Shown: positions 11,696 through 21,876 of the stretch, one piece after another
Layout of the letters: each line of letters begins with the position of its first letter
Position numbering within the stretch: position 1 is the first letter of the stretch
Source: Pyxidicoccus trucidator
Lineage (GTDB): Bacteria > Myxococcota > Myxococcia > Myxococcales > Myxococcaceae
Assembly: GCF_010894435.1 (NCBI RefSeq)
Contig: NZ_JAAIXZ010000013.1
Span: forward strand, 62,001 to 126,000
Length of the DNA stretch: 64,000 nucleotides
Reading direction: 5' to 3'
Notes under the pieces: generated by a model
Told to the model about the DNA's origin: nothing
What the model saw: only the letters and a program-made list of their open reading frames with translations
Database searches by the model: none
Program-made: the position numbers and the translations under genes

Positions 11696-11751
11696 AGTGC
11701 GGTTCTCCTCGCTGAAGGTGGACGCGGCCCAGGATGATAGGGTTCGCGCCC

Positions 11752-12012
11752 ATGGCCAAGTCCCCCTGCCCCGTCACCCTGTCGCAGTTCCTCGAGAAGG
11801 CCGAGCCGCTCAAGGTCGTCATCAACGGCCAGGAGATGCTCGCCGAGGTGAAGTCGTTCTCCACCGGCTCGTTCGGCTGGTACATCAACGGGAAGACGCT
11901 CGTCACCGTCGATGGCAAGCCCGTGTCGGTGCAGATTGGAATGAACCTCACCGTCGTCGGCTCGAAGGAAGCCGACCGCGGCACGCCCAGCACCCCTCCA
12001 TCCGGGACGTAA
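11752..12012 (+). CDS. Small conserved hypothetical protein
   Basis: 86-aa cytoplasmic protein with a compact strand-rich core (LKVVINGQEMLAEVKSFSTGSFGWYINGK) and a loose Pro/Thr tail. No family recognised. The ATG at 11752 was chosen over one 18 bp upstream because MAKSPCPVTLSQFLEKAEPL begins the ordered sequence. It is 57 bp from the divergent dihydroxyacetone kinase start. Confidence 0.65.
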   Translation: MAKSPCPVTLSQFLEKAEPLKVVINGQEMLAEVKSFSTGSFGWYINGKTLVTVDGKPVSVQIGMNLTVVGSKEADRGTPSTPPSGT

Positions 12013-14938: not shown

Positions 14939-15080
14939 GTACGTCGCGCACTCTCAGACTTCGCGAAGACACGACAGCAACCGTGTTTCTTTTGCAGTCC
15001 ACGTTGAATACCGGAAGCACTCCTCCGTCCCTTCCTTTCCTTCGCAGCGCCAGGCCGGCGGCGCTTAGCGAGGACAACAC

Positions 15081-17831: not shown

Positions 17832-17859
17832 GTCGCAGGCAGCACCGCTGAGCAGTGAC

Positions 17860-17894
17860 GGCCCTCCTCTTTTCTCCGTGGGAAGAGGGGGGCC
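17860..17894 (+). terminator. Terminator hairpin after CARDB gene
   Basis: Arms GGCCCTCCTCTT (17860-17871) and AAGAGGGGGGCC (17883-17894) pair over 12 positions with a single G-T wobble and an 11-nt loop, 29 bp after the stop codon. Confidence 0.65.
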
Positions 17895-17962
17895 GGGCGC
17901 CGCGTACGGAAGCCGGAGGAAATTGGATGTAACCGGCTTTTCGACGTGTGCGTAGCACTGAC

Positions 17963-19693
17963 ATGAACCTCAAGCTCCAGCGCAAGCTCACTGTCACGAC
18001 TCCTCCGTCGTTCCCCAGGGCAGAGCCGAAGCCGGCGAAGCCTCCTCCGGCCGCCGCTGCGCGTCAGACGGAGCGCAGCTCGTTCGAGAGGTCAGCGCCT
18101 CGGCCCGCGGGGATGCCCGTCATCACCGATGAGCGCCGTCCCATGGGCATCGTCCCGGACATGGCGACTTCGCGCATGCCGAGCGGTGCCGAGCTCACGG
18201 TCAGCGGCAGGCCTGGCATGGCCGCCTTCCGGGTCAACGGTGCGCTGGGACGCGGCATGGAGATGCCGGCCCCGCAGATGGACCCGCTCCACAAGGAGAT
18301 GCAGCGCTCCGAGGTGAAGCCGGCGGCGACGTCCCTCGGCAACAGCTCGATGGAGGCGGAGGCAGCTCCGGCGGAGAAGTCCCTCGGCAGCAGCCCGATG
18401 GAGGCGGAGGCAGCTCCGGCGGAGAAGCAGGTGAAGGAGGGGACGGGCGCAACGGCGGGCGACGTCCGCACCGCCGCCAGTGACTCGGTGGAGGACGAGG
18501 TCGACGAGGCGCTGGACGACATCCGCAACCCGGCCGAGCTGGCGGACGCGCTCGCCTCGGGCGAGCTGTCTCCCGAGGCGCAGGCCGAGCTCATCCATCA
18601 AGTCGTGGAGGGCGGCGTCGACTCCATGGGGAGCCTCCTGGGCGTGCGCACCCTGGAGAATGTCGACCTCACCTTCGACCCTGGCTCCTATGACACCCTC
18701 GTGCTCAGCCCGGCCCAGCGGCAGGCAGTGGCGGACGCGCTCATCACCGCCCACAACGAGCAGCCCTTCAGCGAGGAGGAATTGCTCTCGCTCGCGCCGT
18801 ACCTGCCCGACCTCGCGCGGTCCACCACCGGCAGCGTGGACGGCGGCCTCGTGGAGTCCATCGGCGAGGCCCTGGAGGAGCGCGGTGATGAGGGCGATGC
18901 GGCGCTCGCGGCGTTCGCCTTCACCTCGTCCGCCGCCCTCATCGCCGAGCACTACCCCACCAACGCGGACCGCGTCGAAGCCTTCGAGTTGCTGAACGAC
19001 GCCCTCCCGGACGCGTACGGCGGCCTCATCGGCGACTACGCGACGGACGGACAGGAGCGCGTGGCCGCCAACCTGACGCGGCTCTTCGCCTTCGACACCG
19101 AGGGGCTGCTGGAGCACTACCTGGCGACGGGACACGACGAGGAGTCCACGCTCGCGACCTTCTTCTCCAACACGCTGCTCAACCCCGCGTTCGCCAACGT
19201 GCCCATCGAGGAGGGGCTCGACGGGAAGGGCACGGAGAGCATCTCCGAGCTGCTGAACCGCCGCATCGACGAGTACTCCGGCGCCATCTTCGACCGGCTC
19301 GGAGAGACCACCGACGCCAACGAGGCCGAGCGCGCCAACCTCTCCGACAAGCTCGGACGTCTCGCAGCCTCCGTGCTGGGGGGAGCCACCATCCTCCTGG
19401 AGGAAGGGGAGGCCGAGCGCGAGACGCTGGCGAACCTGGTCACCTCCACGCTGGGCGCCCTGATTCCCAGCTTCACGGGCAGCGACGTGCTCATCTCCGC
19501 CCTGGGCGACACCATTCGCAACAGCGAGATTGACGGAGCAGACGCCGCCGAGCAGTTCGCCGAGCAGCTCTCCAACTCCTTCCAGACGGTGCTCGAGGAG
19601 CTCGAGAGCACGCTCAACACGGGCGTGCTGACCAGCGCCTTCGTCAGCGCCTTCGACCACGAGAAGGGCTGGCTGACGGAGGAGCGGAACTAG
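17963..19693 (+). CDS. Unrecognised acidic protein with disordered leader
   Basis: 576 aa, family not recognised. Residues 1-50 are Pro/Ala/Lys-rich and disordered and end in RSSFERSAPRP. There is no signal peptide or membrane segment. Near residues 118-155 a duplicated block SLGxSxMEAEAAPAEK occurs twice in tandem. From about residue 165 the protein is acidic and strongly alpha-helical, with many DEVDEALDD- and EELLSLAPYL-like segments and a regular helical-repeat look. An ATG at 17963 (MNLKLQRK) is preferred to GTG at 17948. It lies directly before a SitA/SitI toxin pair; whether it is an effector or part of that island is unknown. Confidence 0.6.
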   Translation: MNLKLQRKLTVTTPPSFPRAEPKPAKPPPAAAARQTERSSFERSAPRPAGMPVITDERRPMGIVPDMATSRMPSGAELTVSGRPGMAAFRVNGALGRGMEMPAPQMDPLHKEMQRSEVKPAATSLGNSSMEAEAAPAEKSLGSSPMEAEAAPAEKQVKEGTGATAGDVRTAASDSVEDEVDEALDDIRNPAELADALASGELSPEAQAELIHQVVEGGVDSMGSLLGVRTLENVDLTFDPGSYDTLVLSPAQRQAVADALITAHNEQPFSEEELLSLAPYLPDLARSTTGSVDGGLVESIGEALEERGDEGDAALAAFAFTSSAALIAEHYPTNADRVEAFELLNDALPDAYGGLIGDYATDGQERVAANLTRLFAFDTEGLLEHYLATGHDEESTLATFFSNTLLNPAFANVPIEEGLDGKGTESISELLNRRIDEYSGAIFDRLGETTDANEAERANLSDKLGRLAASVLGGATILLEEGEAERETLANLVTSTLGALIPSFTGSDVLISALGDTIRNSEIDGADAAEQFAEQLSNSFQTVLEELESTLNTGVLTSAFVSAFDHEKGWLTEERN

Positions 19694-19983
19694 CACTCCT
19701 GCGTCAGGGGCCCGCGGGGTGCACGGGGAGACGGGCTGGCTGCGTGAGGCGCGTCGGTGGTTGGAGCGGTGGCAAGTGGGGCAGCGAGGCAGCCAGGTGG
19801 CAATCACACGCGCCATGGCGAGCCGTATGACGCTGTGACGGCTGAGCTGCTTCTTCGTTCTGAACCCCGGCAGGGAAACGAGGAAGTCATTGGCGGGCTC
19901 GGCCTCATCGTCCCGCTACTCGATGAGCAGCCACAGCGGCTCCCCTCTCGTCACGGCAGGTTGGAATGATATTTTTGCTGGAT

Positions 19984-20655
19984 ATGCGAACCTTTCATGC
20001 TTTCGGGCTTTCGTTGGTTGCGGTGCTCTGGCTGGGCTGCTCCACCACGCCACCCACTCCCATGGCGCAGGCATGGGACGAGGCGGAGGTGGAGTGCCAC
20101 ACCGCCGAGGCAGACCAGTGCGTTTCGCTCCTATGCTTGGGGGACGCCTGTGGCTTCTACCGGTGCGGGGACCTGCCCGGTGAAATCGAGCTGGCGCGCT
20201 TCCCGCCTGCACGTCCTCCAGCGCCTTCTGCGGCGCCTGGGAGTGGTCCCCGGAGGAACTGGGGGGGCGCGGGGAAGCTCCCAGGTGGGGCCGTCATGGT
20301 GTTCCCCAACTGGAACGGCGCCCCCGAGCAAATCACCCCCCCTTCACGCCAGCTCACGCCGGGCCGCTGGGAGAAGCACCACATCTTTCCCCAGTCTCAG
20401 GACCTGGCGGAGTGGTTCGAGGCCCGGGGCGTCAAAATCCACGACTACACGATGCCCATTCCGCTTCACGTCCACAGACGCATTCACGACGGCAGCGGAC
20501 GTGGTGGCGCATGGAATGATGCGTGGCGCGAGTTCAAGACGAGAAACCAGAACGCCCCACCAACGGAGATTTTCAAGTTCGCGGGGGAGATGATTCACCG
20601 CTTCGAGCTCATCGGAGGCCCCATTCAGTCTTACTATTCCCGCCCCGGAGCGTGA
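19984..20655 (+). CDS. sitA6: SitA6-family lipoprotein toxin with HNH/AHH-like nuclease end
   Basis: 223-aa polymorphic toxin of the swarm-inhibition (Sit) type (TIGR02269 lipoproteins). Such toxins sit in the outer membrane and pass between TraA-matched kin by outer-membrane exchange. The signal peptide MRTFHAFGLSLVAVLWLG is followed by lipobox Cys19. A Cys-rich segment (ECHTAEADQCVSLLCLGDACGFYRC) and a Pro-rich linker follow. The C-terminal toxin domain has RWEKHHIFPQ (His132-His133) and IPLHVHRRIHDG, then WNDAWREF, an HNH/AHH-like nuclease pattern. Start at 19984; an ATG 18 bp upstream is possible. The local AT-rich stretch before the gene suggests transfer. The cognate immunity gene begins 13 bp downstream. 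Confidence 0.85.
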   Translation: MRTFHAFGLSLVAVLWLGCSTTPPTPMAQAWDEAEVECHTAEADQCVSLLCLGDACGFYRCGDLPGEIELARFPPARPPAPSAAPGSGPRRNWGGAGKLPGGAVMVFPNWNGAPEQITPPSRQLTPGRWEKHHIFPQSQDLAEWFEARGVKIHDYTMPIPLHVHRRIHDGSGRGGAWNDAWREFKTRNQNAPPTEIFKFAGEMIHRFELIGGPIQSYYSRPGA

Positions 20656-20668
20656 GGTCTTCCAACAG

Positions 20669-21379
20669 ATGAGCCGGTTCTTTTGGCTGCGCGAGGATAA
20701 GGCGGTAGCGGCTGGCTTCGACGCCACCCACAAGTGGCGTCTGCCCGGCGTGCGGTGCCACACGTGCGGCGCCACGTGGGCGAGTGCAGGGCACCAGTAT
20801 CCCGCTGTGGACCTGTCGCAGATGCCGGAGCGCCGCGAGTTCGAGGTGGCCCGACCCGAGCCATTTCGTGAGTTCGCGCGCCTGCGGGAGCTGGTGCGCC
20901 CCCTGGCGCCGCCCAATGCTCCGTTGCCGCCCGGCACACACTTGGGTCCCCTGGTGGGCCTTGCCTCCGGGGAGTTCGGCCCGTTCACGTCCCTGGGTGA
21001 CGTGCTTTGGGTGATTCGTCGGCATGCGCTGGAGCGCCTCCAGGCGGAAGGCGTGAGGGGGCTGTTGGGTTGCCGGACGGAGCTGCGGTTCCGGCAGAAG
21101 AACCCGCCTGAGCTGCTGGAGCTTCAGATAGAGCCGCACGGTCGCCTTCACCCGGACTGCATTCCCCCGGACGTGCCTCCGCCGTGCCCGACCTGCGGCT
21201 GGGTGTATTTCCGGCTGCCGGATGAACCCATTCTGGACGCGGCGTCCCTGCCCCCGGAACTGGACCTGTTCCGGGTGGGTGACTACTCGACGGTAATCGT
21301 GGGTACCGAGCGGTTCATGGAGGCCGTGCGCCGCCTGGAGCCAGGCGGCATCACGTTCCACGAGCTGCCAACGCGCTAG
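20669..21379 (+). CDS. sitI6: SitI6-family double-CxxCG immunity protein
   Basis: 236-aa cytoplasmic protein of the double-CxxCG family (TIGR02264) that is always found after SitA6-type lipoproteins. Two zinc-ribbon-like motifs are visible: CHTCG (Cys30/33) and CPTCGW (Cys173/176). The fold is otherwise unassigned. It is expected to neutralise the nuclease encoded 13 bp upstream and to make the cell and its kin resistant. No membrane segment, consistent with protection inside the cell where the nuclease acts. Confidence 0.85.
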   Translation: MSRFFWLREDKAVAAGFDATHKWRLPGVRCHTCGATWASAGHQYPAVDLSQMPERREFEVARPEPFREFARLRELVRPLAPPNAPLPPGTHLGPLVGLASGEFGPFTSLGDVLWVIRRHALERLQAEGVRGLLGCRTELRFRQKNPPELLELQIEPHGRLHPDCIPPDVPPPCPTCGWVYFRLPDEPILDAASLPPELDLFRVGDYSTVIVGTERFMEAVRRLEPGGITFHELPTR

Positions 21380-21622
21380 CGGCGCCAAGCGCTCCGACTG
21401 GAGAACCTGGGGGCGCCGCGCGTGCTCGGCTCCGTCCAGGACCGGTTGACGGCGCTGGTGGGGAGGGCGGCCCCGTCCGGTGGTGCTTGCCAGGAGCGCA
21501 CCCACCGGGCTGGAGCGAGGGAGGCAACCTGACCTCAGTGGGGCGCATCGGAATGCGCGGCAGTGCACGGTCCCCGAACCGCCCGCCCTTCTCATTCTCC
21601 GTCAGGGCTGCGTCCACTCACC

Positions 21623-21876
21623 ATGAATCCAGCGCTCACCGATGCCACCCGGTTGGCGCGTAAGCGGCTGGTCGAGGAAGTGCGGTTGGCCACCTACCTG
21701 AATCATCCGAACATCGCCCGCGTCCACGGGCTACACGAAACCGAAGCGGCCTTGCACGTCATCATGGAGTCCGTCAGCGGGCGCCCGCACATCGTCCACG
21801 GGCGGTTGACCCCAGCCGCATCCGCGCGAAGCTGAGCGGCAAGGCGAAGCTGACGGACAGCGCAGGCCCGGCAACC
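21623..21876 (+). pseudogene. Truncated, frameshifted Ser/Thr kinase remnant
   Basis: Remnant of a Hanks-type kinase. The frame from ATG 21623 reads RLVEEVRLATYLNHPNIARV then HGLHETEAALHVIMES, which matches the alpha-C helix to hinge region. It then jumps to HIVHGRLTP, the catalytic-loop region, with the intervening segment deleted. After 21813 the match continues two frames over as PSRIRAKLSGKAKLTD, so a frameshift follows. The glycine loop, catalytic Asp and C-lobe are absent. It lies between the Sit pair and gluconokinase, where gene debris is common. Confidence 0.65.

What the first reader, a model, noticed from the sequence alone, without database searches (positions are those of the whole stretch)
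17963..21876. SitA6/SitI6 toxin-immunity island flanked by an unknown protein and a kinase relic
A lipobox toxin with a HHIFPQ-type nuclease end is followed 13 bp later by a double-CxxCG protein (established SitA6/SitI6 arrangement of myxobacterial swarm inhibition). Sit toxins move between kin by TraA-dependent outer-membrane exchange and discriminate self. The gene debris downstream and the AT-rich stretch before the toxin suggest a replaceable cassette. The toxin tip is the variable part, so its specificity may be new.
Basis: partly seen in the sequence, partly recalled or inferred. Interest (0 to 1): 0.75.

Follow-up and report, generated by a model that had tools for sequence, protein, structure and literature searches.

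The report
SitA6/SitI6 toxin-immunity pair, recently inserted
A social soil bacterium carries here one of its many copies of a known kind of contact-delivered DNA-cutting toxin with its antidote, in a small patchwork of DNA that its close sequenced relatives lack at this spot.

Summary
Window 19984-20655 is a SitA6 lipoprotein toxin (TIGR02269, 282.8 bits, cut-off 85.75); 20669-21379, 13 bp on, is its SitI6 immunity protein (TIGR02264, 329.5 bits, cut-off 100.15). It is one of 16 SitA6 loci in this Myxococcus-group genome, which also has TraA and TraB. 'Replaceable cassette' is supported: about 3.98 kb (17900-21876) is extra DNA between a CARDB gene's hairpin and a gluconokinase gene. Two relatives are empty there; a third holds a lone SUKH immunity gene at the same junction. 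The insert is a mosaic: an orphan gene, a truncated transposon (new here), the sitAI6 pair, and a collapsed kinase locus. 'The toxin tip is the variable part' is not supported: over 60 pairs the catalytic-type His, Trp and Asn positions are invariant. An AHH fold was not confirmed by sequence or structure. SitI6 folds like MXAN_0049 (Imm11), in line with its published clan. Most likely function: TraA-dependent delivery of a nuclease to kin lacking SitI6, as published for the family; inferred, not tested, for this copy. A new member of a known kind; the reused slot and the minimal promoter-A-I unit merit follow-up.

The parts
17859..17895 (+). 16-bp hairpin after the CARDB gene; the insert begins 4 nt after it (last base shared with relatives about 17899)
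   Evidence: fold -39.2 kcal/mol, z -3.44; hairpins at the same place in G002 (z -3.67) and G010 (z -1.59, 13 of 200 shuffles as stable); junction alignment. No T run, so the terminator scan does not list it
17900..21876 (.). inserted segment (about 3.98 kb) absent from the same slot in G010 and G023; G002 has a SUKH immunity gene there instead
17963..19693 (+). P581: orphan Ala/Leu/Glu-rich protein (576 aa from ATG 17963, 581 from GTG 17948), no Cys, no strong hydrophobic stretch; its stop lies in a CTAG next to the IS end
   Evidence: no Pfam or PHROGs hit, NCBIfam only far below cut-off; no match in 40 relatives, plasmids, viral contigs
19694..19943 (-). relic of a multi-copy IS with a DDE_5 transposase: one end kept, about 235 bp deleted inside, the rest of the element missing
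   Evidence: 92-94% identical to other copies in the same genome; intact copy L182 883-2133 is PF13546
19967..19975 (+). extended -10-like element TGATATTTT, 17 bp before the start codon
   Evidence: TGnTAnnnT between -34 and -8 in 22 of 52 close family members, 0 of 52 in each of nine control windows
19984..20655 (+). sitA6: lipoprotein toxin, 223 aa; lipid Cys19; invariant H132 H133 H153 H164 H168 W177 N178
20669..21379 (+). sitI6: immunity protein, 236 aa, two CxxC motifs (C30/C33, C173/C176 invariant in 60 of 60)
   Evidence: model pLDDT 89.1, fold of MXAN_0049
21463..21858 (+). relic of a protein-kinase locus: leader segment (21463-21634) joined to two pieces of a kinase gene (21628-21784, 21787-21858)

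Best explanation
This is an intact member of the SitA6/SitI6 toxin-immunity family in a small mosaic island. Shown here: both genes belong to the family, the residues invariant in the family are present, the genome has TraA/TraB, and the island is extra DNA relative to close relatives. Inferred from published work on the family: SitA6 is lipidated, held in the outer membrane, passed to a TraA-compatible neighbour by outer membrane exchange, acts in a way that needs ClpA/ClpS in the target, and cuts DNA in the cytoplasm; SitI6 is not transferred and blocks the nuclease in clonemates. Acquiring the pair would therefore turn recent siblings that lack SitI6, or a cross-protecting homologue, into targets.
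For: HMM scores far over the cut-offs for both genes. 16 SitA6 loci and 19 SitI6 loci in the genome. TraA 1058 bits and TraB 1016 bits, adjacent. Lipobox pattern in 50 of 60 members, window included, versus 0 of 60 SitI6 N-termini; the residue after Cys is S, A or G. Purifying selection: whole-gene dN/dS 0.18-0.26 (SitA6) and 0.15-0.24 (SitI6) in six comparisons. Toxin and immunity distances correlate among 52 close pairs (r 0.50; highest of 2000 permutations 0.267), which shared descent of linked genes alone would also give. A plasmid pair, pMF1.20/pMF1.19, is over both cut-offs; pMF1.20 cut DNA in vitro and was bound and inhibited by pMF1.19 (PMC6091211). SitA6 alleles were used in OME resistance screens, clpA and clpS mutants being resistant (PMC8546572).
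Against: No expression, delivery or killing data for this copy. The toxin fold is not confirmed: the model is poor overall (pLDDT 58.5), with no match at E 0.001 or better. The biochemically tested relative is only 34% identical. The lipobox has Trp at -3 and fails a stricter pattern of mine, which only 19 of 60 members meet; 35 of the 50 members that meet the looser pattern share that Trp. No sitB-like gene was looked for.
Confidence: 0.82

Rival explanations
1. The pair acts mainly as an addiction module that keeps its own island or replicon, killing cells that lose it, rather than in kin discrimination.
For: pMF1.19/pMF1.20, members over both cut-offs, raised retention of a test plasmid in M. 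xanthus from 43% to 84% at 168 h (PMC6091211). A second Myxococcus plasmid, pYRE, carries the pair near a ParB gene. The island here holds no recognisable benefit gene.
Against: The authors of that paper themselves speculate about delivery to neighbours, and the protein has a lipoprotein signal. The two roles are not exclusive: killing of cured siblings is also kin discrimination. Only 2 of 72,556 plasmid records matched, against 16 loci in this one genome.
Confidence: 0.2
2. The pair is a decaying remnant like its surroundings (IS and kinase debris) and is no longer used.
For: Neighbouring debris. Of the genome's 16 SitA6 loci 2 are in pieces (C22; C2, which also lacks the N-terminal half), and of 19 SitI6 loci 3 have no toxin beside them, 2 of these broken.
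Against: Both frames are whole, the family-invariant residues are present, dN/dS is well below 1, and the promoter-like element is kept although IS sequence ends only about 40 bp before the start codon.
Confidence: 0.1
3. The slot differs because relatives lost the island, not because this genome gained it.
For: Only 4 genomes seen share the slot, and the surroundings do change: G002, G010 and G023 have a peptidase S37 gene between NMO and CARDB that the window lacks.
Against: G010 and G023 join the CARDB hairpin and gluconokinase cleanly (118 and 115 bp between the ORFs); a clean loss would be needed there. P581 was found in none of 40 relatives; the IS and kinase pieces have their relatives elsewhere.
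Confidence: 0.08

Closest known systems
SitA6/SitI6 (TIGR02269/PF09533 and TIGR02264/PF09535) of Myxococcus xanthus DK1622, nine loci (PMC12077181)
   Same: both families over cut-off, same order, lipoprotein signal, TraAB genome
   Different: 16 SitA6 loci here; this copy is at most 81% identical to any SitA6 found and sits at a site empty in close relatives. DK1622 itself was not compared by name
pMF1.20/pMF1.19 of Myxococcus fulvus plasmid pMF1 (PMC6091211)
   Same: both over cut-off, same His pattern; demonstrated nuclease and inhibitor
   Different: 34% (toxin) and 40% (immunity) identity; plasmid-borne
MXAN_0049 (Imm11, T6SS immunity protein; PDB 6a4c)
   Same: fold of the SitI6 model: Foldseek E 5.8e-5, VIA-align Z 11.8 over 169 residues at 3.5 A; clan link already in print (PMC12077181)
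   Different: 12% identity; SitI6 has double CxxC and no PF07791 hit
AHH nucleases (PF14412) of the same genome, 25 matches
   Same: a HH dyad followed by spaced His residues, by eye
   Different: none of 36 SitA6 members hits PF14412; hhalign probability 1.6-4.8%

Membership tests
SitA6 toxin | TIGR02269 score over curated cut-off | tested here: met
   282.8 against 85.75 bits
SitA6 toxin | lipoprotein signal peptide with lipobox | tested here: met
   a recalled PROSITE-type pattern matches the window copy and 50 of 60 members in all; a stricter pattern of mine matched 19 of 60 and not the window
SitA6 toxin | same (non-modular) toxin domain in all members | tested here: met
   one alignable domain with invariant residues in 60 of 60 pairs
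SitA6 toxin | AHH nuclease domain (PF14412), as stated in PMC8546572 | tested here: inconclusive
   0 of 36 members hit PF14412 at E up to 10, within HMMER's filters; hhalign 1.6-4.8%; structure search weak on a poor model
SitA6 toxin | immunity gene directly downstream | tested here: met
   SitI6 starts 13 bp after the SitA6 stop
SitA6 toxin | traAB in the same genome | tested here: met
   NF033759 1058 bits, NF033763 1016 bits
SitA6 toxin | TraA-dependent transfer and killing | not testable with these tools
   needs a co-culture assay
SitI6 immunity | TIGR02264 score over cut-off and two CxxC motifs | tested here: met
   329.5 against 100.15 bits; two CxxC in 60 of 60 members
SitI6 immunity | neutralises the cognate toxin | not testable with these tools
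   shown in what I read for pMF1.19 (PMC6091211)
Imm11 (PF07791) | PF07791 match | tested here: not met
   only PF09535 listed at E up to 0.1
Imm11 clan | Imm11 fold | tested here: met
Mobile element with its own recombinase | integrase or intact transposase inside the insert | tested here: not met
   a truncated transposase relic only; none in the four ORFs of the insert that were scanned; shorter ORFs were not scanned

The most novel reading that the evidence does not exclude
The slot between the CARDB-gene hairpin and gluconokinase is a docking site for interchangeable toxin/immunity genes, and the unit that moves is minimal: a nearly leaderless -10 element of about 20 bp plus sitA6 and sitI6, without a recombinase. 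A second address may be the leader of a kinase locus, which follows sitAI6 here and an AHH-Imm11 pair in another species, so that unrelated toxin-immunity types would replace one another at fixed places.
Probability: 0.25. Interest if true: 0.55.

Novelty: new member of a known kind. Interest (0 to 1): 0.36.

Why it matters
Sit cassettes are described as self-identity barcodes that change when a pair is gained or lost (PMC10047993, passages). Here a probable gain is visible almost to the base, with empty sites in two close relatives, a different immunity gene at the same junction in a third, and the debris of other insertions. That makes it a tractable case for asking how such pairs move without a recombinase of their own and whether a lone immunity gene at the slot protects against a departed toxin.

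Tried and rejected
'Toxin tip is variable': rejected on 60 pairs. 'Positive selection': no 40-codon bin in six comparisons has pN/pS over 1, the highest being 0.87 in SitI6 81-120. 'AHH fold': Pfam, hhalign and structure search gave no support; among weak VIA-align rows the phage T5 SciA endonuclease appears at Z 2.7, below unrelated ATP synthase rows at 3.1-3.2, so nothing is claimed. 'The -10 motif is specific to sit genes': rejected, since one of three exact genome matches of a longer pattern precedes an unrelated small gene at window 11735. 'The IS brought the pair': no support; blastn found nothing like window 19694-19983 in the other loci held at that time and the IS is truncated at the pair. 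'Prophage cargo': no SitA6 match in phage records or viral contigs. P581 origin: nothing in 40 relatives, plasmids, viral contigs or PHROGs; two PDB rows at E 0.15 and 0.45 are taken as chance. tblastx rows for P581 are scattered short pieces and were discarded.

Against the docking reading: only 4 genomes share the first slot. For the kinase leader, G013 has AHH-Imm11 directly upstream, G021 has only an inverted Imm11-like stretch about 1.9 kb away, and G023 has an alpha/beta hydrolase gene there.

Limits: the genome search scores only part of its first-look candidates (33 per genome at most, 15, 18), so absences and copy counts there are not exhaustive. Flank sharing used flanks up to 4 kb and a 600-bp threshold, so shared contexts may be undercounted; 7 of 60 pairs had under 1 kb downstream. 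Split, truncated or unpaired copies were dropped from the pair set, and one truncated reading from L007 was dropped before alignment (60 left of 61). Entropy bins rest on 52 of the 60 pairs, dN/dS on 6 relatives. The junctions are good to a few bases. The IS701-like label and its YTAR target rule are recalled, as is the PROSITE-type lipobox pattern.
Full report
What is there. NCBIfam names them SitA6 family polymorphic toxin lipoprotein (TIGR02269, E 1.5e-84, 282.8 bits against a cut-off of 85.75) and SitI6 family double-CXXCG motif immunity protein (TIGR02264, E 1e-98, 329.5 bits against 100.15). The start codon at 19984 fits the family. The window is part of a 12.67-Mb genome in 136 contigs. 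Some same-genus relatives can be named by matching contig lengths: G023 is Pyxidicoccus caerfyrddinensis, G013 Myxococcus eversor, G012 Pyxidicoccus fallax, G016 Myxococcus vastator. The species of the window itself was not identified.

Family setting. The genome has 18 TIGR02269 matches in 16 loci: 14 as single matches without stops, 2 in pieces (C22; C2, which also lacks the N-terminal half). It has 20 TIGR02264 matches in 19 loci: 16 beside a SitA6 locus, one whole gene without a toxin (C11) and two broken ones without (C12 at 310 kb, C34). Of 41 genomes searched, 24 have a match to this SitA6 at E 1e-10 or better: 24 of the 25 of this genus (own included) and 0 of 16 outside it. The nearest copy, 80-81% identical, is in G023 at another place. 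TraA and TraB, adjacent, are in the same genome.

Where it sits. In G010 and G023, as in the window, NMO, CARDB, gluconokinase and DNA ligase follow one another; the relatives have one more gene, a peptidase S37, between NMO and CARDB, which the window lacks. Only 118 and 115 bp separate their CARDB and gluconokinase ORFs; in the window it is 4,045 bp. Alignment puts the extra DNA at about 17900-21876, from 4 nt after a strong hairpin to the gluconokinase stop codon. G002 has the same flanks and, at the same junction, about 0.6 kb with one SMI1/KNR4 (SUKH-1) gene, E 2.9e-20. So of the 4 genomes seen with CARDB beside gluconokinase, 2 are empty and 2 hold different inserts. G020's contig ends too close to judge; the other genus members lack this CARDB neighbour where examined (20 of 24 relatives fetched, G007, G016, G018 and G022 not).

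What the insert is made of. From left to right: P581, a 576-aa protein with no match in the libraries and relatives searched; an IS relic, whose end begins right after the CTAG that holds P581's stop codon and which has lost an inner piece and most of its transposase gene, with matches at seven other places in the genome, three of them at contig ends, and one intact copy coding for a DDE_5 transposase; the pair with about 40 bp of upstream DNA that resembles that of its nearest relative L018 (by eye); and a collapsed kinase locus. In G013, G021 and G023 the leader and the kinase pieces are 1.2 to 3.6 kb apart; here they are joined. In G013 an AHH (PF14412, E 1.6e-21) and Imm11 (PF07791, E 2.7e-7) pair lies directly upstream of that leader, where the window has SitA6 and SitI6. 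G021 has only an inverted Imm11-like stretch 1.9 kb away and G023 a hydrolase gene.

How small is the unit. Among 52 close pairs, upstream identity exceeds the distal baseline (0.295) only within about 20 bp of the start codon, and downstream identity falls to baseline right after the stop codon (ungapped). The upstream bit includes an extended -10-like element: TGnTAnnnT occurs between -34 and -8 in 22 of 52, and in 0 of 52 in each of nine control windows further upstream. It would place the transcription start a few bases before the ATG (inference). The element is not specific to sit genes. The 60 pairs fall into 42 flank contexts, and the nearest SitA6 relative shares a flank for 24 of 60. 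So pairs change place often, but shared contexts exist too.

The proteins. Across 60 pairs, residues H132, H133, F135, H153, H164, H168, G175, W177, N178 and W181 of SitA6 and the four Cys of the two CxxC motifs of SitI6 are invariant; in the 52 closest, SitA6 varies most at 1-40 and next at 181-200, SitI6 at 101-120 and 1-20. All six comparisons show purifying selection. The SitI6 model (pLDDT 89.1) has one significant PDB match, MXAN_0049, in line with the clan link stated in PMC12077181 (part 1 of 2 read). The SitA6 model is confident only around residues 131-206: a strand with the HH dyad, a second strand (156-160) and a helix (161-167) with H164 in it and H168 just after it recall a His-Me finger nuclease, but searches did not confirm this. 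PMC8546572 (passages and one section) assigns SitA6 toxins to AHH nucleases; my sequence comparison with 19 of the 25 AHH domains of this genome did not show it.

How it works. Best supported: outer membrane exchange hands the lipoprotein to TraA-compatible neighbours; the nuclease domain reaches the cytoplasm; cells without SitI6 die. For Sit toxins these steps rest on PMC5562445 (passages), PMC8546572 and PMC10047993 (passages), and for the nuclease and its inhibitor on the plasmid pair pMF1.20/pMF1.19 (PMC6091211, parts 1 and 2 of 4 read). For this copy they are inferred. Addiction is a plausible second role.

Verdict. An ordinary member of an interesting, known family, at an unusually clear insertion site. 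The literature searches brought up papers that place sitAI loci on prophages and other mobile elements; in the passages read I saw no description of this slot or of the near-leaderless element, but I read no paper in full.

Noticed in passing
G000:C8:274286-278957 (L090): Three sitAI6 pairs in tandem, about 1.62 kb apart. Toxins are 82-90% identical to one another, immunity proteins 70-78%: immunity appears to diverge faster than toxin.
   Followed up: partly
L062:8842-9321: Lone SUKH-1 immunity gene at the same junction as the window's island in G002; no toxin gene seen between the flanking genes.
   Followed up: partly
L180 (G013:C70): AHH and Imm11 pair directly upstream of the kinase-locus leader whose relic ends the window's island.
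   Followed up: partly
window 20029-20040 and family: Trp at position -3 of the lipobox (WLGC) in 35 of the 50 SitA6 members that match the loose pattern; unusual for a lipobox.
   Followed up: no
L124, L127, L133, L135: Records titled 'Comamonas sp. KCTC 72670' encode SitA6 copies, and L124 shares flanks with loci of this genus: probably a mislabelled myxobacterial genome.
   Followed up: no
window 11735-11754: A similar extended -10-like element directly before a small gene that starts at 11752; likely a general near-leaderless promoter type.
   Followed up: partly
SitA6 residues 38-61: Besides the lipid Cys, Cys at 38, 46, 51, 56 and 61 are kept in 58-60 of 60 members: possibly a disulfide-bonded region.
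   Followed up: no
G000:C34:33240-36142: A broken SitI6 gene without SitA6 lies about 2 kb from an AHH-domain frame.
   Followed up: no
window 14939-15080: The peptidase S37 gene that G002, G010 and G023 have between NMO and CARDB is missing; no trace anywhere in the window by tblastn.
   Followed up: partly
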